From Streptomyces spirodelae (GTDB lineage: Bacteria > Actinomycetota > Actinomycetes > Streptomycetales > Streptomycetaceae), in assembly GCF_017676385.1 (NCBI RefSeq), contig NZ_JAFFZN010000003.1, positions 1 through 64,000 on the forward strand: a DNA stretch of 64,000 nt. Direction: 5' to 3'. Below the pieces are notes generated by a model, which worked only from the letters and a program-made list of their open reading frames with translations, ran no database searches and was not told the DNA's origin. The position numbers and the translations under genes are program-made. Shown here piece by piece: positions 51,033 to 58,996 of the stretch. Within the stretch, counting starts at the first letter, position 1, and each line of letters opens with the position of its first letter.

Positions 51033-51254
51033 TCACGCGCGGCCGAGTGCGTCTCGCTGGACGGCCGTGACAAATGACGACCATGCGGAGGCCGTGAAGG
51101 TGAGCGCCGGGCCGTGGGGAGCCTTGCTGTCGCGGACGGGGACGGTGCCGGAGCTGATGTAAGCCGGCGCCCACTCGACGCAGTTGTAGCCCCCGTCACC
51201 GCTGTAGCTCGACTTCACCCACTCCGTGTGGGAGGGGTCAGGAGTTGTGTTCAT
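51033..51254 (-). CDS. DUF397 protein, copy 3 of the array
   Basis: 73 residues from the ATG at 51254. The DUF397 core is WVKSSYSGDGGYNCVEWAP, VPVRDSKAPHGPALTFT and WSSFVTAV. The C-terminus (QRDALGRA) has diverged from the other copies and ends 9 nt earlier than the repeat period predicts. DUF397 proteins are small partners of XRE/DUF5753 regulators (BldB/WhiJ-type systems) and are often antitoxin-like. It overlaps the preceding copy by 17 nt. Confidence 0.9.
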   Translation of the reverse strand: MNTTPDPSHTEWVKSSYSGDGGYNCVEWAPAYISSGTVPVRDSKAPHGPALTFTASAWSSFVTAVQRDALGRA

Positions 51255-51468
51255 GGTGCAGCTCCCCGCGCTTGACCGCAGATACGAAGTCGGCCCAGCC
51301 GTCGGCCGTGAAGGTGAGGGCAGGGCCGTGGGGTTCCTTGCTGTCCCGGACGGGGACTGTCCCGGAATTGATGTAAGCCGGTGCCCACTCGACGCAGCCT
51401 CCACCGTTGCCGTTGCTGTAGCTCGACTTGACCCACTCCGTTTCGGAGGGGTCAGGAGTTCTGCTCAC
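51238..51468 (-). CDS. DUF397 protein, copy 2 of the array
   Basis: 76 residues from a GTG at 51468. WVKSSYSNGNGGGCVEWAP, VPVRDSKEPHGPALTFT and WADFVSAVKRGELHHEHNS identify DUF397. It overlaps copy 1 and copy 3 by 17 nt each. The start codon differs (GTG) from the other two copies (ATG), which could lower its expression. Confidence 0.92.
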   Translation of the reverse strand: MSRTPDPSETEWVKSSYSNGNGGGCVEWAPAYINSGTVPVRDSKEPHGPALTFTADGWADFVSAVKRGELHHEHNS

Positions 51469-51682
51469 GGTGCAGCTCCCCGTGCTTGACCGCAGTCACG
51501 AACTCGGCCCAGCCGTCGGGCGTGAAGGCGAGTGCCGGGCCGTGGGGGCTTTTGCTGTCGCGGACGGGGACGGTGCCGGAGCTGATGTAAGTCGGTGCCC
51601 ACTCAACGCAGTTGGCGCCTCCGTTGCCGCTGTAGCTCGACTTGACCCACTCCGCGCTGGAGAGGTCAGGAGTGGTGCTCAT
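51452..51682 (-). CDS. DUF397 protein, copy 1 of the array
   Basis: 76 residues from the ATG at 51682, which overlaps the regulator stop in ATGA. Core WVKSSYSGNGGANCVEWAP, VPVRDSKSPHGPALAFT and WAEFVTAVKHGELHREQNS. As the copy coupled directly to the XRE regulator it is the likeliest ancestral partner. Confidence 0.93.
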   Translation of the reverse strand: MSTTPDLSSAEWVKSSYSGNGGANCVEWAPTYISSGTVPVRDSKSPHGPALAFTPDGWAEFVTAVKHGELHREQNS

Positions 51683-52509
51683 GTCGGTAGTGCCTCCATC
51701 ACGGACCGGACGAACGCCGCCGAATCCTCCGGCGACAAGGCGCGTGCCCTTACCCGATTGTAGGCGCGCTGGCGTTCGATGACGCTGTCCAAGTTCTCCA
51801 TGAGCGTGCCCGTCGAGATGCCCTCCTCGTAAGCCACGCGTTCGCCGTTGTCCAAGGTCATCAGCGCCAGCGTGCCACCTACCAGGGCATGTCCCCCCTG
51901 TTCGAATGGGAGAACCTGCACCACGGTTGTCCGCGTAAGTGTCAGCTCTGCAACGCGCGCCAACTGCGCACGCATGATGGCCGGGTCGCCGAAGCTGCGT
52001 CGGATCGCCGCCTCATCGATCACGGCTGAGTAATCCAGCAGCGTGTCGGAACGCAGCAGCCTTTGACGGCTCAGCCGAGCAGCGACGAGCTCCTCGATCC
52101 TGTCCTGCGACTGCCAGGGATTGGCCTCCTTGAACTGGGCGCGTGCATAGTCCGCTGTCTGGATGAGCCCCGGCACAATCTGACCGCTGTATTCGTCCAG
52201 CACCTGCGCACGTGCTTCAAGCTCCATCCGACGCTGGAACTGATCCGGATGGATCTCCTTGCTCGCGAGCAGGAACAGCTCCTCGAAGATCCCGTCCGTG
52301 CCGAAGGCGGCGTCCAGCATCGGTGGCAGTGAAGGCGGTGGCATCACCTCGGCTGTCTCGATGCGGGACAGGTGGCTGCGGCTGATGTTCACCACGTCCG
52401 ACAGGCCCTCAAGGCTCATGCCGGCCCGCTCGCGATGGGTGCGCATCTTGGCGCCGAAGAGGTGCCGGGCGCCTCGGTCGGGGGTCAGTTCTCGTGGTCG
52501 GGCTGGCAT
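51679..52509 (-). CDS. XRE/DUF5753 transcriptional regulator (Scr1/WhiJ-like)
   Basis: 276 residues from the ATG at 52509, with GGAGG 6 nt upstream. The helix-turn-helix (about 18-55: FGAKMRTHRERAGMSLEGLSDVVNISRSHLSRIE) is followed by the DUF5753 domain (YSGQIVPGLIQTADYARAQF; RLLRSDTLLDYSAVIDEAAIRRSFGD; VVQVLPFEQGGHALVGGTLALMTLDNGERVAYEE). Such regulators act with DUF397 partners and often control neighbouring small-peptide or developmental genes. A palindrome lies in the 116-bp divergent region shared with the methyltransferase operon. Confidence 0.94.
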   Translation of the reverse strand: MPARPRELTPDRGARHLFGAKMRTHRERAGMSLEGLSDVVNISRSHLSRIETAEVMPPPSLPPMLDAAFGTDGIFEELFLLASKEIHPDQFQRRMELEARAQVLDEYSGQIVPGLIQTADYARAQFKEANPWQSQDRIEELVAARLSRQRLLRSDTLLDYSAVIDEAAIRRSFGDPAIMRAQLARVAELTLTRTTVVQVLPFEQGGHALVGGTLALMTLDNGERVAYEEGISTGTLMENLDSVIERQRAYNRVRARALSPEDSAAFVRSVMEALPT

Positions 52510-52588
52510 CGGGCGGCCTCCGTTCTCCCCGGGTGGGGCTGGGGAGATGAATTCCTCGCTCTCACCTGCAACCCAGGGCAACATTTGG

Positions 52589-52625: not shown

Positions 52626-52856
52626 GTGAACGACTGGAGTGGTGTGGCCGAGGCGACGCCCGAGGAGGCGTGCGACGAGTTGAAGGACGCTCTTACGGCG
52701 GCGGGGGTGAAGTTGCCGTCGCTGTCGGTCGAGGTCGCTTCATATGCCGGGTGGTCCAAGCCCGCGCTGATCGAGTTGGGGCGCTGCAACGTGGCGACGG
52801 CCCGTGCGCTCGCCGCCGCGCTGCGGTCCGGGGCGGCGGGGGAGGGAGAGGGGTGA
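52626..52856 (+). CDS. Small protein, first gene of the PIMT operon
   Basis: 76 residues from a GTG at 52626, with GGGAG 5 nt upstream. I do not recognise the family. The sequence (TPEEACDELKDALTAAGVKLPSLSVEVASYAGWSKPALIELGRCNVATARALAAALRSG) is helical and soluble-looking, and the second half could be a small helix bundle or a leader-binding element. The stop overlaps the next small gene in GTGA. Divergent from the XRE regulator. Confidence 0.75.
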   Translation: MNDWSGVAEATPEEACDELKDALTAAGVKLPSLSVEVASYAGWSKPALIELGRCNVATARALAAALRSGAAGEGEG

Positions 52857-53014
52857 GCGGGGAGCTGGAGCGGCAGGAACGACGTCGCACCACGGCCGAG
52901 TTGAGCGAGCAGGCGGAGCGACTGGGCCGCCAGATCGATGAGCACCTGGAGGGTCTGGGCCGCCGCCCCCCTCCCCCGACCACCCCCGCAAAACGTCACC
53001 AGTCTGGCCGGTGA
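52853..53014 (+). CDS. Small charged helical protein, second gene of the PIMT operon
   Basis: 53 residues from a GTG at 52853 overlapping the previous stop (GTGA). The sequence is strongly charged with a predicted helix (ELERQERRRTTAELSEQAERLGRQIDEHLEGL) of coiled-coil character, then a Pro-rich basic tail. No family is recognised. The tight coupling and codon bias support expression. Confidence 0.6.
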   Translation: MSGELERQERRRTTAELSEQAERLGRQIDEHLEGLGRRPPPPTTPAKRHQSGR

Positions 53015-53062
53015 CGAAACCAAACACCCCCCCGCAGCACCACAGTCGAGAGGAACACAGCC

Positions 53063-53179
53063 ATGGGCAGGCACAGTGACGGCAAGGGCGGCCAGGAAGG
53101 GGATCAGCAGCAGTCCCCTCGTGAGTCGGACGGGCAGTGGGAACGGCCCGTTCCCCCGGCCGATGACGACGAGAAGTGA
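53063..53179 (+). CDS. 38-residue Asp-Gly peptide, candidate RiPP precursor
   Basis: ATG at 53063 with GAGAGGA 8 nt upstream, stop at 53177-53179, 7 nt before the methyltransferase start. The peptide has no Cys or Thr, only three Ser, and many Gly, Gln and acidic residues. It contains two Ser-Asp-Gly motifs (Asp6 and Asp23), one Gly-Asp-Gln, and an acidic ending PADDDEK. Asp-Gly is the most aspartimide-prone dipeptide, which fits a substrate for the adjacent PIMT-like enzyme. The alternative is a non-precursor small protein, and conservation in relatives would decide. Confidence 0.55.
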   Translation: MGRHSDGKGGQEGDQQQSPRESDGQWERPVPPADDDEK

Positions 53180-53186
53180 CCCGGCC

Positions 53187-54329
53187 GTGAACGACTCGGA
53201 GTACGAGGAACTCGTCGCGTCCCTGGGTGAGTCCGGTGCTCTCGGAGCGGGCTGGCGGGGTGCCTTTCTGCGCACCCCGCGCAGTCTCTTCGTCCCGGAG
53301 CGGATCTGGCTCGCGGCAGGCCCCAGCGGGTACCGGCAGATCACCGAGCGGGACGACCCCGAAGCGTGGCGGGCGACCGTGAACGCGGACGCACCAGTGG
53401 TGACGCAGCTCGATGACGGGGAAGAGTCCGGTCCGGGCGTCGCGACAAGTTCGGTCAGCATGCCTTCGCTGGTCGGCCGGATGCTCGCGCACCTCGATGT
53501 GCGCGACGGGACCCGGTTGTCCGTGCTGGAGATCGGCTCGGGCTGGACGACAGGGCTCCTGTGCTCGCGCGTGGGCGCGCGACGCGTCGTGTCCGTGGAG
53601 ATCGACCCGCAGGTGGCGGGACGTGCCCGTAAGGCGCTGGCGCTGGCCGGACACGCGCCCGTGCTCGTCGTCGGCGACGGAACGCGGGGGTTTCCCGAGC
53701 AGGCGCCGTACGACCGTGTGAGTTCCACAGCGGCGGTTCACCGCGTGCCCCCTGCCTGGGTGGCGCAGACGAAACCAGGCGGAGTGATCGTCACACCTTG
53801 GGGGACGCCCTTCTGCAACGCCGGTCTGTTGAAGCTGCACGTGCGTGAAGGGGAGGAAGCCGAGGGGCGGTTCGTGGACAGCGTGAGTTTCATGTGGGTA
53901 CGGGGGCAGCGGCCAGGCGCCCCGGCGGATGCGCCGCCCAGCGGCGAGGCCCGTTACGGCCCCTCCGCGATCAATCCGGAATCAGTGCTCGAATCCGTGC
54001 ACTCCGCGTTCGCCGTCGGGCTCCACCTCCCCACGGTGCGGTATCGCGTGGTGTGGGACGAGAGCGATCCGCGAACGACACGTCGGCTGGTGCTGTGGGA
54101 CGGCGACGGCTCACGGGCCACCGTGTTCCTCCACGACTGGAAGGCCACCGACACGGTGCGGCAGACCGGCCCCCGGAATGTGTGGGACGAGGCCACCGCC
54201 GCTCGCGGTTGGTGGGAGAGCGAGGGAGAGCCGGAGCTGACGCGCTTCGGGGTCACGGCCACGGCTGACACCCAGCACGTATGGCTGGATCGGCCCAGCC
54301 GGGTCGTCAGCACGTGGCGGGTCAGCTGA
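53187..54329 (+). CDS. PIMT-like O-methyltransferase with C-terminal extension
   Basis: 380 residues from a GTG at 53187. The N-terminal 210 residues match protein-L-isoaspartate methyltransferase: VATSSVSMPSLVGRML (substrate side), SAM motif I VLEIGSGWTTG (113-123), VVSVEID (134-140), VVGDGTRGFPEQAPYDRV, and KPGGVIVTPWGT. Housekeeping PIMTs are about 210 residues. The extra 170 here resemble the extension seen in RiPP-modifying PIMT homologues (graspetide, lanthipeptide, imiditide, pamtide types). No ATP-grasp or lanthionine gene is in the window. The end overlaps the converging gene by 8 nt. Confidence 0.9.
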   Translation: MNDSEYEELVASLGESGALGAGWRGAFLRTPRSLFVPERIWLAAGPSGYRQITERDDPEAWRATVNADAPVVTQLDDGEESGPGVATSSVSMPSLVGRMLAHLDVRDGTRLSVLEIGSGWTTGLLCSRVGARRVVSVEIDPQVAGRARKALALAGHAPVLVVGDGTRGFPEQAPYDRVSSTAAVHRVPPAWVAQTKPGGVIVTPWGTPFCNAGLLKLHVREGEEAEGRFVDSVSFMWVRGQRPGAPADAPPSGEARYGPSAINPESVLESVHSAFAVGLHLPTVRYRVVWDESDPRTTRRLVLWDGDGSRATVFLHDWKATDTVRQTGPRNVWDEATAARGWWESEGEPELTRFGVTATADTQHVWLDRPSRVVSTWRVS

Positions 54330-56607
54330 GGGGTTCCGGGGCGGGGCCCGGCTCGACGGGGGCGGGCGGGGCTTCCCCTGCGGCTTCGGCTTCCTCCGGG
54401 GTGGGGACCCGGCGGCGTTCGGCCAGGGGGACGACGGGAGGGAGCGCGTCCAGGGGCTCCCCCAACAGCGCGTGGCGGACGACGCGTTCGGCGGCGCGGC
54501 CGTCGTCCCAGGGGCAGAAGCGGGCGCGGAAGGCGCTCCGCAGGGCGCGGGCTTCGGGTCCGCGCCAGGTACCGCTGCGGAAGACGGCCGTCAGCTCGTC
54601 CTCGGTGCGGGTGACGGGTCCAGGGGTCTCGCCGGGGCGGCCGGAGAGCAGGTCGAAGTAGACGCCCCGGGTGTCGCGGTAGCTCTCCCAGTCGGGTGCG
54701 TGGACGACCAGGGGCCGGTCGAGGTTGGCGTAGTCGAACATCAGGGACGAGTAGTCCGTGATCAGCGCGTCGGCGGCCAGGCACAGGTCTTCCACCGAGG
54801 GGTGGCGGGAGACGTCCCGCACCAGTCCACGTGCGTGAAGGTCGCGCAGTGCGCTGTCGCGTCCGTAGTAGTAGTGCGTACGCACCAGCAGCACGTACTC
54901 CTCGCCGAGCCCGGCGCTGAGCCGTTCCAGGTCGAGGCGGGGGACGAAGCCCTTGCGGTAGTCGCGGGCCGTGGGCGCGTACAGCAGGGCGGTCCGGCCG
55001 CGCGGGATGCCCAGCCGGGCGCGCACGGCGGCGATCTCCTCGGCGGTGGCGGTCGCGAACCGGTCGTTGCGCGGGTAGCCGGCCGGCAGGTCCGTGTAGC
55101 CGCAGGGGAAGACGCGGTCCCACACCTCGGCCGAGTGCGGGTTGGCGGTGACACTCACATCCCACCGGGCCACCCGGCGCAGCAGCTTGCCGAAGTCCAT
55201 CTGGGCTGCGGCCGGGTAGGGCTGCTGGTCCAGGCCCATCGTCTTGAGCGGGGTGCCGTGGTGGGTCATCACATGCACCTGGCCCGGCCGATTGACCAGG
55301 TGGTCGGGGAAGTTGACGTTGTTGACGAAGTACCGGGCGCGGGCGAGCATCCGCCAGTAGCGCCGGGAGCCGGGCACAACGTGGTCGGTGCCCGGCGGCA
55401 GCGCGGGGACGGCGTCCTTGCGTACCACCCATACGCTGCGCACGTGCGGCGCCAGCTCGCGCGCCTTGGCCTCGATCGCCTGCGGATTGCAGGCCACCCC
55501 CCGGTGCCAGTACGCGGAGTAGAGGGCCACGTCCGGGTGGAGCGGCAGCAGCCGCTGGAGTGCGTAGTAGAGACCGTGGAAGGCGCGGGCCACATGGGGG
55601 CGGGCGGCGCGGGCGGAGCGCCGGGCGAGTCCGGCGGCGCGGCGTACCGTCTCCCGCGCGGCGAACAGCGTGTAGCTGTTGTGGGCGAGCAGCCGGCAGT
55701 CGCGGGCCCGGCGGCGCGGCGGGGTGAAGCCGGGGGGTATGTGGTCGCGGTAGAGGCGGGCCGCCTGCCGGAAGAAGGCGCGCCGGTCGGCGGGGCGCAC
55801 CCGGTCCCGGCGCCGTATGCAGAAGATCAGGTGTGTCACCGCGCGTTCGAACAGCAGCGGGCGGTGTGCCGCCAGTTCGGGGCGGCGCTCCAGGAAGGCG
55901 AACAGGGAGGCGTACTGCGGGAAGATGTCGAAGTGCCGGCGCCCGGGGGAGCGGGTTATGGCGCCCTGGTGCCGCTGTCGGTAGTCGACGCAGACGCGCG
56001 GCAGGCAGCCGATGGACTCCGCGCACACCAGTGCCTCGTTCGACAGCGGTGCGTCCTCGTAGAGCCCGGGCTCGAAGCGCAGCCCCTCGCGCAGGTAGAA
56101 CTCGCGGCGGTACGCCTTGTTCCAGGCGACGTGGAAGAGGGTGAGCAGTTCGGGGTTCTCCGCCACGGTGAAGGTCTGGGTGCCTACGGCGGCCAGTTGT
56201 CCGCCGTAGGAGCTGACCTCGGTGTGCCCGTCCCAGTAGGAGCGCTGGTGGTCGAAGATCAGTACGTCCGGGTGGCCGCAGGCGGTCAGTTGCCGGTCGA
56301 TCGCGTCCAGCGCGCCGGGCAGATAACTGTCGTCGCTGTCGAGGAAGAGCAGGTAGTCGCCGTGCGCGTGCTCGACGCCGGTGTTGCGGGCCCGGCCCAG
56401 TCCCACGTTCTCGGGCAGATGCAGCACCCGTACGCGCGGGTCACGCGCCCCGTATTCGTCGAGTATCGCGCCGCTGTGGTCGGGTGAGCGGTCGTCGACG
56501 GCTATGAGCTCGAAGTCGGTGAAGGACTGGCCGAGCACCGAGTCGAGGCACTCGCGCAGGTAGCCCTGGACCTTGAACACCGGTACGACGACGCTGAAGC
56601 GGGGCAT
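54322..56607 (-). CDS. GT2 + CDP-glycerol phosphotransferase fusion (downstream copy)
   Basis: 761 residues from the ATG at 56607. Residues 1-230 are GT2: MPRFSVVVPVFKVQGYLRECLDSV, LIAVDDRSPD, YLLFLDSDDSYLPGAL. Residues 360-735 are TagF-like: LYSAYWHRGVACNPQAIEAKAREL, MTHHGTPLKTMGLD, LLYAPTARDYRKGF and LITDYSSLMFDYANLDRP. Bifunctional enzymes of this build make teichoic-acid-type chains at the inner membrane. It starts inside the 3' end of its paralogue (106-nt overlap) and ends 8 nt inside the methyltransferase gene. Confidence 0.92.
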   Translation of the reverse strand: MPRFSVVVPVFKVQGYLRECLDSVLGQSFTDFELIAVDDRSPDHSGAILDEYGARDPRVRVLHLPENVGLGRARNTGVEHAHGDYLLFLDSDDSYLPGALDAIDRQLTACGHPDVLIFDHQRSYWDGHTEVSSYGGQLAAVGTQTFTVAENPELLTLFHVAWNKAYRREFYLREGLRFEPGLYEDAPLSNEALVCAESIGCLPRVCVDYRQRHQGAITRSPGRRHFDIFPQYASLFAFLERRPELAAHRPLLFERAVTHLIFCIRRRDRVRPADRRAFFRQAARLYRDHIPPGFTPPRRRARDCRLLAHNSYTLFAARETVRRAAGLARRSARAARPHVARAFHGLYYALQRLLPLHPDVALYSAYWHRGVACNPQAIEAKARELAPHVRSVWVVRKDAVPALPPGTDHVVPGSRRYWRMLARARYFVNNVNFPDHLVNRPGQVHVMTHHGTPLKTMGLDQQPYPAAAQMDFGKLLRRVARWDVSVTANPHSAEVWDRVFPCGYTDLPAGYPRNDRFATATAEEIAAVRARLGIPRGRTALLYAPTARDYRKGFVPRLDLERLSAGLGEEYVLLVRTHYYYGRDSALRDLHARGLVRDVSRHPSVEDLCLAADALITDYSSLMFDYANLDRPLVVHAPDWESYRDTRGVYFDLLSGRPGETPGPVTRTEDELTAVFRSGTWRGPEARALRSAFRARFCPWDDGRAAERVVRHALLGEPLDALPPVVPLAERRRVPTPEEAEAAGEAPPAPVEPGPAPEPLS

Positions 56608-58913
56608 GACCACCAGTCCTTCACTGCGAGGGGGGCGGGAGTCGGGAGGGGCTCGGGGGTGCCGGACGGGCGGCCGGGCGCGGGCGCGGGCCGCCGCTCG
56701 GCGAGCGGGACGACAGGAGGGGACGCGGCCGCGACGACGGGACCGCCGCCGGTGGCAGGCGCCTCGCCGAGGAAGACGTGCCGCACCACGCGCTCGGCCG
56801 CGTGGCCGTCGTCCCAGGGGCAGAACCGCTGCCGGAAAGCGGCTCGCAGGGCGCGGGCGTGCTCGGTGGCGTAGGCGCCGGTTGCGAGGATGTCGATCAG
56901 TTCGTCGTCGCCGCGTGCCACGGGCCCCGGCGCCATGGTCGTCACATCGAAGTAGGTGCCGCGCGCCTCGCGGTAGGTCTCCCAGTCGGGTGCGTGGACG
57001 ACCAGCGGACGGTCGAGGTTGGCGTAGTCGAACATCAGGGACGAGTAGTCGGTGACCAGCACGTCCGAGGCCAGGCACAGTTCCTCGACCGAGGGATGGG
57101 CGGTCACATCGATCAGCCCGCCGGGCGGCTCGCACGGCAACCCCTCGCCGGCGAGGAAGTAGTGCGAGCGGACGAGGACGACGAAGGACGGTCCCAGCGC
57201 CGCCACCAGCCGTGCCAGGTCGAGGCGGGGCTGCCTGCCGGGCTGGTGATCGCGGTGGGTGGGCGCGTACAGCACGGCCGTCACCCGGTCGGGGATGGCG
57301 AGTTCCGCGCGGACACGGGCGACGTCGGCGGCGGTGGCGGTGTGGAAGACGTCGTTGCGCGGGTGACCGAACTCCAGTGTGGTGTACGGGGAGGGGTAGG
57401 CGCGCTCCCACACCAGGGTGGAGTGCGGGTTGCCGGAGAGGCTGTAGTCCCAGCGGTCGGTGTGCTCCAGCAGCCGTGCGAAGTCCATGCCGTCCGCGGC
57501 GGCCGGGTAGGCCAGCAGATCGAGCCCCATGTGCTTGAGCGGGGTGCCGTGGTGGGTCTGCAGGAGCGTCTGGCCGTGCCGTTTGCGGTAGCGGTGCGGG
57601 AGGTTGACGTTGCTGACCAGGAACCGGGCGCGGGCCAGCGCGGTCCAGTACGCCGCCGAGTCCGGCCGCAGGTGCCGTACGCCGGGCGGCAGGGTGGGCG
57701 CGTACGCGGGGTCGCATATCCACGCCGTGCGGATGCCGGGGACCAACTCGCGCGCCTTCGCCTCGACGGCCGCCGGGTTGCAGGAGTAGCCGCGGCCCCA
57801 GTACGCGGAGAAGACGGCGAGGTCCGGGTCGAGGGGGCGGCACCGCTGAAGGCGGTAGTACGCGTGCAGCGCCGCCTTGCGCAGCAGGGAGCGCACCGGG
57901 CGCAGCCGGGCGCTCATCGCGCGGTGCGCCCGCCCGGCGTGCGAGAGCAGCCGGAAGACGCGGTGCGTGCCGCACCGCACCAGCAGCCGGCGCAGCCGCC
58001 GGGCGGACGTGTCGGGCGGCCCGGCCACGCCGGGTGCGGGCCGGTGGCGGCGGCAGGAGTCCCGTGCGCGGCGCATGAACTCCGCGCGGGCCGAGCGGGG
58101 CAGCCGTGCGGGGCTGCTGTGGATGGTCGCGAAGTGGTCGGTCATCCGCTGGTGCAGATGGGGGCGCCAGCGCTCCAGCTCGGGCCGGGCTGCCAGGAAG
58201 GCGAACAGCCTGTCGTACTGTTCGAAGACCTCGAAGTGGCCGTGCCCCGTCGTCGTCAGGATGCTGCCGCCGCGCCGCTGCCGGTAGTGCACGCACACCC
58301 GCGGCAGCGTGGCGAGGGTGCGCGCGGTGAGCAGCACGGGGAAGGACCAGGGGGTGTCCTCGTATCTGCCGGGCGGGAACGTCAGGTTCTCGCGGAGCAG
58401 GAAGTCGCGGCGGTAAGCCTTGGCCCACGCGAAGGCGGGCAGCCGCAGCAGCTCGGGGCGGTCGGCGATGGTGCCGACGGCGGGCCCGGTGCCGTCGGCC
58501 AGCAGGTCGGGGTGGGCCGCCGGGCCGAGGGAGCCGTCCCAGTAGGCGGGCGCGAAGTCGAACACCAGTACATCCGGATCGCTGGTCGCCGACAGTCGCT
58601 CGGCCAGCGCGCGCAGGGTGCCCGGGGCCATGGTGTCGTCGCTGTCGAGGTAGAGGACGTAGTCGCCGCGGGCGCGTGCGGTGCCGGTGTTGCGGGCCGG
58701 ACCCAGTCCGCCGTTCTGCGCCAGATGGATGACGGTCACCCGTGGGTCGGCGGCGGCGTATGCGTCCAGGATCTCTCCGCAGGAGTCGGGGGAGTGGTCG
58801 TCGACGCCGATCAGCTCGAAGTCCCCGAAGCACTGGCCCAGTACGGAGTCGAGGCACTCGTGCAGGTACGCCTGCACCCGGTGGACGGGCACGATCACGC
58901 TGAAACGGGGCAT
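56502..58913 (-). CDS. GT2 + CDP-glycerol phosphotransferase fusion (upstream copy)
   Basis: 803 residues from the ATG at 58913. Same architecture as its neighbour: GT2 (MPRFSVIVPVHRVQAYLHECLDSVLGQ; YVLYLDSDDTMAPGTL), then TagF-like (VFSAYWGRGYSCNPAAVEAKAREL; LQTHHGTPLKHMGLDLL; VTDYSSLMFDYANLDRP). The last 35 or so residues, Ser/Ala-rich, are an out-of-frame reading of the downstream gene's start. This overlap probably couples translation of the pair. Together with the gene at 26710, this region has three CDP-glycerol-transferase-type enzymes. Confidence 0.92.
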   Translation of the reverse strand: MPRFSVIVPVHRVQAYLHECLDSVLGQCFGDFELIGVDDHSPDSCGEILDAYAAADPRVTVIHLAQNGGLGPARNTGTARARGDYVLYLDSDDTMAPGTLRALAERLSATSDPDVLVFDFAPAYWDGSLGPAAHPDLLADGTGPAVGTIADRPELLRLPAFAWAKAYRRDFLLRENLTFPPGRYEDTPWSFPVLLTARTLATLPRVCVHYRQRRGGSILTTTGHGHFEVFEQYDRLFAFLAARPELERWRPHLHQRMTDHFATIHSSPARLPRSARAEFMRRARDSCRRHRPAPGVAGPPDTSARRLRRLLVRCGTHRVFRLLSHAGRAHRAMSARLRPVRSLLRKAALHAYYRLQRCRPLDPDLAVFSAYWGRGYSCNPAAVEAKARELVPGIRTAWICDPAYAPTLPPGVRHLRPDSAAYWTALARARFLVSNVNLPHRYRKRHGQTLLQTHHGTPLKHMGLDLLAYPAAADGMDFARLLEHTDRWDYSLSGNPHSTLVWERAYPSPYTTLEFGHPRNDVFHTATAADVARVRAELAIPDRVTAVLYAPTHRDHQPGRQPRLDLARLVAALGPSFVVLVRSHYFLAGEGLPCEPPGGLIDVTAHPSVEELCLASDVLVTDYSSLMFDYANLDRPLVVHAPDWETYREARGTYFDVTTMAPGPVARGDDELIDILATGAYATEHARALRAAFRQRFCPWDDGHAAERVVRHVFLGEAPATGGGPVVAAASPPVVPLAERRPAPAPGRPSGTPEPLPTPAPLAVKDWWSCPASASSYRCSRSRATCASASTRCSASPSPTSSS

Positions 58914-58996
58914 TTGCGAGTCCCGGGTTCGACGGTTGGCTCCGCCTCGATTTATCCCATATGGGGCGCATCGCCACATCTTGGCGCCGCGTCCTC

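What the first reader, a model, noticed from the sequence alone, without database searches (positions are those of the whole stretch)
52626..54329. Minimal RiPP-like operon: Asp-Gly peptide plus extended PIMT-type methyltransferase
Seen: a 38-codon ORF (53063-53179) with a good ribosome site, two Ser-Asp-Gly motifs and no Cys or Thr, 7 nt before a 380-residue PIMT homologue carrying about 170 extra C-terminal residues; two small coupled ORFs precede it and an XRE/DUF5753-DUF397 module is divergent. Known: PIMT homologues with C-terminal extensions modify Asp in RiPPs (graspetides, some lanthipeptides, imiditides, pamtides) to aspartimide or isoaspartate. Inference: this is a methyltransferase-only aspartimide/isoaspartate peptide system. 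The peptide class and the two small helper proteins match nothing I recognise.
Basis: partly seen in the sequence, partly recalled or inferred. Interest (0 to 1): 0.85.

Follow-up and report, generated by a model that had tools for sequence, protein, structure and literature searches.

The report
Two-gene aspartate-modifying peptide cassette (pamtide/imiditide)
A Streptomyces-like genome carries a small peptide gene next to a methyltransferase that most likely reshapes one aspartate in it; this belongs to the known pamtide/imiditide class, and the peptide is kept nearly unchanged even where the enzyme beside it is of another lineage.

Summary
The 38-codon ORF (53063-53179) and the PIMT-type methyltransferase (53187-54329) form a two-gene cassette. 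Searches found 40 peptide homologues in the same family of bacteria. All 41 copies lie directly ahead of a methyltransferase homologue, and Asp6, Asp14, Asp23, Gly24 and Trp26 are invariant. Of 101 related methyltransferase loci, 86 have a small Gly/Pro/Asp-rich ORF upstream. This is the published type I pamtide/imiditide class, so the claim is right in kind but the class is not new. The likely chemistry (Asp23 to aspartimide to isoaspartate) is inferred, not measured. The 76-aa ORF goes with XRE/DUF5753-DUF397 regulators (20 of 24 homologue loci) and the 53-aa ORF has no convincing homologue; neither looks like a helper. DUF5753 regulators do recur upstream of such cassettes (20 of 100 loci, about 0.7 expected), so the divergent regulator may control this one. 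Unexpected: one precursor family is paired with two well-supported methyltransferase lineages and probably a third; in one case peptides 97% identical over 32 residues sit beside enzymes 38% identical. Its conserved residues therefore probably serve the product, not only enzyme docking.

The parts
53063..53179 (+). Precursor peptide gene, 38 aa (MGRHSDGKGGQEGDQQQSPRESDGQWERPVPPADDDEK); most likely target Asp23 in ESDGQW
   Evidence: 40 homologues found by similarity, all ahead of a methyltransferase homologue; D6, G10, G13, D14, D23, G24, W26 invariant 41 of 41
53187..54329 (+). PIMT-type peptide aspartyl O-methyltransferase (PAMT), 380 aa, with C-terminal domain carrying WxxxGxP (WESEGEP)
   Evidence: TIGR04188 276 bits full length (cut-off 380), Pfam PCMT 83.8 bits; groups with graspetide/pamtide-type enzymes; TSSxSMP and WxxxGxP
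51679..52584 (-). XRE/DUF5753 regulator, divergent; possible regulator of the cassette, not a constant part
   Evidence: DUF5753 160 bits. DUF5753-type regulators lie within 1.7 kb upstream, either strand, at 20 of 100 other methyltransferase loci against a density of 269 in 67 Mb, i.e. about 0.7 expected; codirectional just upstream at 6 of 14 type A/C loci and 1 of 10 type B loci
52626..52856 (+). 76-aa ORF: companion of XRE/DUF5753-DUF397 regulators, not a peptide-modification helper
   Evidence: homologues in 44 of 61 genomes incl. own; of 24 homologue loci 20 have XRE/DUF5753, 19 DUF397, 0 a methyltransferase. Against: one of the methyltransferase loci, L087, does have a homologue about 0.8 kb upstream
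52853..53014 (+). 53-aa ORF, no support as part of the system; possibly not a gene
   Evidence: no convincing homologue in 60 other genomes, best E 0.0026

Best explanation
The cassette is a type I pamtide/imiditide biosynthetic unit. The peptide gene is translated just ahead of the methyltransferase. The methyltransferase binds the linear peptide, probably with its C-terminal domain, and methylates one Asp side chain with SAM. The ester is attacked by the backbone amide of the following Gly, giving an aspartimide (-18 Da), which opens to isoaspartate. Asp23 in ESDGQW is the most likely target; Asp6 and Asp14 cannot be excluded. Shown here: the two genes, their linkage, their conservation, the enzyme's family placement, and that no TIGR04187 ATP-grasp partner was found in this genome. 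Inferred from characterised relatives: the chemistry, the target and the mode of recognition. Unknown: leader removal, export, and what the product does. Because one peptide family is paired with at least two methyltransferase lineages, its conserved residues probably reflect the function of the product as well as enzyme recognition.
For: Peptide directly ahead of a methyltransferase homologue at 41 of 41 loci. Flanking genes otherwise differ at 11 loci compared, apart from one related pair. Invariant Asp/Gly/Trp residues. Full-length match to the ATP-grasp-system methyltransferase model, below its cut-off, with no TIGR04187 match in this genome. 86 of 101 related methyltransferases, window included, have a similar small ORF upstream, and 3 of 101 have an ATP-grasp in the fetched DNA. 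The published definition fits: two genes, ~45-aa Gly/Pro/Asp-rich precursor, conserved Asp near Pro/Gly; the reaction was seen for SpaA/SpaM. WxxxGxP present. The short SAM motif EIGSGW is shared by the nearest relative, in another genus (L217), so it is kept rather than decaying.
Against: No biochemistry. Three Asp residues are invariant, so conservation does not fix the target; and the 40 homologues were found by similarity to this peptide, which itself favours conservation. The review describes charge-based recognition and strongly positive peptides; this one is net -5 with an acidic tail, and the other 85 candidate precursors have a median of -2. The closest genus enzyme (G044, 53%) has no precursor beside it and none at E 0.5 in its genome. 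The window's SAM motif I lacks two residues of the usual GTGTG. 5 of 41 neighbouring methyltransferases look frame-broken.
Confidence: 0.87

Rival explanations
1. A mismatched or decaying pair: the ESDGQW peptide sits beside a methyltransferase of another lineage with a shortened SAM motif, and no longer works.
For: The first 10 genus homologues of the peptide are beside a different methyltransferase clade, 33-40% identical to the window's; SAM motif I is short.
Against: In wider searches 16 of 41 loci (window included) have a window-type enzyme, up to 68% identical; L217, in another genus, has the same motif I, the same peptide core and an acidic tail. TSSxSMP and WxxxGxP are intact.
Confidence: 0.07
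2. The 38-aa ORF is a translated leader that regulates the methyltransferase, and the enzyme's real substrate is elsewhere in the cell.
For: Position right before the enzyme gene; an orphan relative in G044 without the peptide.
Against: Amino-acid-level conservation of Asp-Gly-Trp residues across 41 loci and at least two enzyme lineages; characterised relatives modify such a peptide.
Confidence: 0.05
3. The enzyme is a housekeeping PIMT that repairs isoaspartyl proteins.
For: PIMT fold family.
Against: Groups with graspetide/pamtide-type methyltransferases, apart from four sampled PIMTs (from distant organisms), and has a C-terminal domain that short PIMTs lack.
Confidence: 0.01

Closest known systems
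Type I pamtides / imiditides (SpaA-SpaM, NmaA-NmaM; PMC10787088, PMC13001092)
   Same: Two-gene layout, PAMT with C-terminal domain and WxxxGxP, short Gly/Pro/Asp-rich Cys-free precursor with a conserved Asp-Gly, no other primary enzyme seen, actinobacterial host
   Different: Own precursor subfamily (MGKHGDGKGGxEGDxxQSPxESDGQWxxP); net acidic here; precursor family shared by two well-supported enzyme lineages and probably a third. SpaA and NmaA sequences were not in the held text, so no direct alignment was made
Graspetide-associated methyltransferases (TIGR04188; AmdM, SsfM type)
   Same: Full-length similarity at 276 bits; same C-terminal motif
   Different: Below the model's cut-off of 380; no TIGR04187 ATP-grasp ligase found in the genome; unmodified linear substrate expected
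Type II pamtides / cysimiditides
   Same: Two-gene precursor plus PAMT
   Different: Their precursors carry two CxxCxGxG motifs; this peptide has no Cys
FxLD lanthipeptide methyltransferases (TIGR04364)
   Same: PIMT core plus C-terminal region
   Different: 106 bits against a cut-off of 320; separate in the trees; no lanthipeptide gene among the few window neighbours scanned

Membership tests
Type I pamtide / imiditide | Two-gene cluster of precursor and PAMT without another primary RiPP enzyme | tested here: met
   Peptide and methyltransferase are the only genes that recur at all 11 loci compared, 11-14 kb each except L209 with 5.9 kb. Window neighbours scanned: an oxidoreductase, two CDP-glycerol glycerophosphotransferases, XRE/DUF5753 and DUF397 genes. 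No TIGR04187 match in the genome
Type I pamtide / imiditide | Precursor of about 45 aa, rich in Gly, Pro, Asp, without the tetracysteine motif | tested here: met
   38 aa with 6 Gly, 6 Asp, 4 Pro, no Cys
Type I pamtide / imiditide | Highly conserved Asp near Gly or Pro | tested here: met
   Asp23-Gly24 invariant in 41 of 41 copies found by similarity
Type I pamtide / imiditide | PIMT homologue with C-terminal extension over 100 aa and WxxxGxP | tested here: met
   Core to residue 236 of 380; WESEGEP; the motif is in 89 of 119 non-PIMT rows
Type I pamtide / imiditide | Conserved charged precursor ends and charge-based recognition | tested here: inconclusive
   Window peptide net -5, last ten residues -3; 8 of 11 first-set peptides have a basic tail, 3 of 11 do not
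Type I pamtide / imiditide | Enzyme converts Asp in the linear peptide to aspartimide/isoaspartate | not testable with these tools
   Needs expression and mass spectrometry
Graspetide | ATP-grasp ligase in the cluster | tested here: not met
   No TIGR04187 match in G000
Type II pamtide / cysimiditide | CxxCxGxG motifs in precursor | tested here: not met
   No Cys in the peptide
FxLD lanthipeptide system | TIGR04364 methyltransferase over its cut-off | tested here: not met
   106 bits against 320
Housekeeping PIMT | Enzyme groups with repair PIMTs | tested here: not met
   Four PIMT rows and four FxLD rows fall outside the 113 rows that hold the window (99*, quick tree, midpoint root)

The most novel reading that the evidence does not exclude
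One precursor family keeps its sequence while its methyltransferase is exchanged between lineages across Streptomycetaceae-like genera. The isoaspartate/aspartimide peptide would then have a conserved job in these bacteria, for example as a signal tied to the DUF5753 regulators that recur beside such cassettes, rather than being a diversifying antibiotic; and PAMTs would be exchangeable modules that meet the same [SGQ]DG[QRK]W site.
Probability: 0.35. Interest if true: 0.6.

Novelty: new member of a known kind. Interest (0 to 1): 0.42.

Why it matters
The review I read in passages (PMC13001092) says future work should connect the aspartimide to bioactivity; for imiditides it calls the aspartimide's role unclear. 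A precursor kept nearly unchanged across several genera and enzyme lineages is a good handle on that. Natural pairs such as L231 and L234, with almost identical peptides and enzymes only 38% identical, would let enzyme recognition be separated from product function by swap experiments in laboratory strains. The frequent neighbouring DUF5753 regulators suggest where to look for a role.

Tried and rejected
Helper-protein idea: not supported for the 76-aa ORF (one exception, L087) nor for the 53-aa ORF.

Graspetide remnant: no TIGR04187 match in the genome. My first ATP-grasp neighbour test used wrong reading frames and the second had three of four queries on the wrong strand; with all four right the count is still 3 of 101 (L068, L130, and a partial one at L038). 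My first reading of L141-L150 had the wrong strand for minus-strand loci and was redone.

I first judged the XRE/DUF5753 regulator unrelated, from type B loci.

Enzyme decay from the short SAM motif: weakened, since L217 shares it. The motif [DN]G and the Gly/Pro/Asp threshold are part of the filter, so those counts do not by themselves show a conserved Asp. Wholly separate origin of enzyme clades A and B: A+B as one clade is rejected (p 0.0045), but A plus L047, L121, L040 plus B is not (p 0.13), so a shared older origin remains possible. Peptides mostly follow enzyme type (30 of 38; shuffled mean 18.2, max 29), so exchange is occasional.

Structure prediction from the single sequence gave pLDDT 32.6 and was not used. 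The search for related loci in genome contigs returned four distant PIMTs only, used as comparison rows. Plasmid searches gave partial DNA matches and protein relatives all under 60% identity. The ESDGQW text search returned one governance paper, not opened, probably a chance letter string.

Full report
The window lies in a 7.3-Mb genome (G000, contig C23). The described features are present at the stated coordinates. The methyltransferase matches NCBIfam TIGR04188 over its whole length at 276 bits against a cut-off of 380, TIGR04364 at 106 against 320, and Pfam PCMT at residues 88-236. The peptide matches no NCBIfam or Pfam family, and the two small ORFs match none above its cut-off. The genome has no TIGR04187 match. 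It has one further methyltransferase homologue, 41% identical, which has its own small peptide ORF (L036) and a DUF5753-type regulator just upstream.

The wider enzyme family is common: 271 of 295 genus genomes have a match at E 1e-30 or better. I fetched DNA around 100 of the listed matches. With the window that makes 101 loci. Of these, 86 have a ribosome-site-led ORF of 26-80 codons upstream with a [DN]G motif and at least 30% Gly+Pro+Asp. A looser look found further peptides at some of the 15 misses (e.g. L091, L101, L107, L128) and none at L037. On 600-nt segments the rule is met at 79 of 101 loci against 1 of 98 upstream controls, 3 of 101 reverse strands and a mean of 2.8 of 101 in shuffles. 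The motif is part of the filter, so this shows the ORFs, not Asp conservation. Three of 101 loci hold an ATP-grasp gene or fragment in the fetched DNA.

The window's own peptide was then the query. In 291 genus genomes 10 homologues score E 3.6e-13 to 9.4e-9 and the next match 0.0039. At E 1e-4 there are matches in 23 of 297 family genomes, 8 of 17 genera, and in 18 of 392 genus genomes; both counts include the window's genome and the draws overlap. Together these give 41 distinct loci with the window. Each has a methyltransferase homologue at the peptide's stop codon: the start extrapolated from the alignment lies between about -52 and +12 nt. In 5 of 41 (L202, L207, L229, L239, L256) the methyltransferase frame looks broken, by assembly error or decay. 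The consensus is MGKHGDGKGGxEGDxxQSPxESDGQWxxPV with a variable tail. D6, G10, G13, D14, D23, G24 and W26 are invariant in 41 of 41, with the caveat that the set was found by similarity. Codon position 3 differs at least twice as often as positions 1 or 2. At the 11 loci compared (11-14 kb; L209 5.9 kb) the peptide and the methyltransferase are the only genes common to all; L204 and L208 share further neighbours. Among type A loci too, DNA similarity is mostly confined to these two genes; some pairs share upstream or other flanking DNA, and L244/L250 share DNA that takes in the regulator.

The surrounding genes. The 76-aa protein has homologues in 44 of 61 genomes, own included. Of 24 homologue loci, 20 hold XRE/DUF5753, 19 DUF397 and none a methyltransferase. 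One methyltransferase locus, L087, has a homologue about 0.8 kb upstream. It is best read as a companion of the regulators. The 53-aa ORF has nothing better than E 0.0026. The regulator itself is another matter. In 8 genomes there are 269 DUF5753 matches in about 67 Mb, so about 0.7 of 100 stretches of 1.7 kb should hold one; DUF5753-type regulators lie upstream of the methyltransferase within that distance at 20 of 100 loci, 10 codirectional and 10 opposite (at least 1.5 kb was available at 97 of 100; the loci are related, so not independent). A regulator is codirectional just upstream of the peptide at 6 of 14 type A/C loci (L243-L246, L248, L250), with a further partial match at L247; three tested carry HTH_31 and DUF5753. 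Of 10 type B loci L206 alone has one there. In the window it is divergent. I read it as an occasional regulator of such cassettes, not a constant part.

Enzyme phylogeny gave the unexpected result. In one search the window's enzyme groups with L217 (68%) and L218 (58-59%) at 100/98, in a type A group of 13 rows (91/80) within a 16-row clade (100/98) that also holds L047, L121 and L040. The enzymes beside the genus homologues first found form clade B (100/100, 100/99, each with L139). Holding the window with B is rejected (log-likelihood 127 lower, p-AU 1e-62; with L139 added p 0.0014). All 32 tree rows of the peptide family as one clade are rejected (p 0.00018) and A+B is rejected (p 0.0045), but A plus L047, L121, L040 plus B is not (p 0.13). 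L224 stands apart in the tree and L260 is closest to it (52%): a probable third type, C. By tree or best match the 41 loci divide into 16 A, 1 probable A, 22 B and 2 C (fragments assigned by best match only). Peptides mostly follow enzyme type, but 7 of 38 have their nearest peptide in the other type and 1 more is tied. The clearest case is L231 (B) and L234 (A): peptides 97% identical over 32 residues, enzymes 38%. L121 and L040/L044 also carry peptides like those of other enzyme clades. Some exchange between precursors and enzymes is therefore the simplest reading under any of these trees.

How it works. From PMC10787088 (abstract, outline and sections 2.2, 2.3, 2.5 read) and PMC13001092 (passages read): PAMTs methylate an Asp, the ester closes to an aspartimide and opens to isoaspartate. 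Type I pamtides/imiditides are two-gene systems with ~45-aa Gly/Pro/Asp-rich linear precursors; SpaA/SpaM and NmaA/NmaM were expressed. The window's pair meets the structural criteria I could test except the charge pattern, which is inconclusive. Asp23 is favoured because an xDG in the C-terminal half is the feature shared with precursors of the wider family, but Asp6 and Asp14 are just as invariant. The window peptide is net -5 with an acidic tail; L217 has an acidic tail too, while most relatives end in Lys. The SAM motif reads EIGSGW instead of EIGTGTGW; L217 shares this, and GRASP_L056 has a motif of the same short length.

Novelty. The class is published. I found no mention of exchange between precursors and enzymes in those two papers by word search, and the motif ESDGQW only in one unrelated, unopened paper of the held library. 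The 2023 imiditide paper is not held and supplements could not be read, so this precursor subfamily may already be listed there. I file it as a new member of a known kind with an unusual evolutionary pattern. The most novel reading is that the peptide is kept by the product's function rather than by its enzyme.

Noticed in passing
L038 (G187:C134:33000-42000), peptide just upstream of its methyltransferase: Candidate precursor with PSPNG where relatives have xDG: an Asn in place of the expected target Asp. The locus also holds a second methyltransferase stretch and a partial ATP-grasp.
   Followed up: no
L003/L037 (G044:C1:3741875-3742996): Type A methyltransferase with no precursor found beside it, directly downstream of an acyltransferase gene (bkdC-like, my reading); a short stretch of L239's methyltransferase, which does have a precursor, is 83% identical to it.
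   Followed up: partly
L036 (G000:C12:380000-389000): A second type I pamtide-like cassette in the window's own genome: an SPDG peptide ending in HRK ahead of a 41% identical methyltransferase, with a DUF5753-type regulator codirectional just upstream.
   Followed up: partly
100 methyltransferase loci and type A loci L243-L250: DUF5753-type regulators are upstream of pamtide-like cassettes far more often than their genome density predicts (20 of 100 against about 0.7).
   Followed up: partly
window 51036-51682, minus strand: Three tandem DUF397 genes behind one XRE/DUF5753 regulator.
   Followed up: no
window 54322-58979, minus strand: Two large CDP-glycerol glycerophosphotransferase/glycosyltransferase genes in tandem; the first converges on and slightly overlaps the end of the methyltransferase gene.
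   Followed up: no
L121, L040, L044: Precursors resembling those of other methyltransferase clades, beside enzymes of the clade next to the window's: further precursor-enzyme mismatches.
   Followed up: partly
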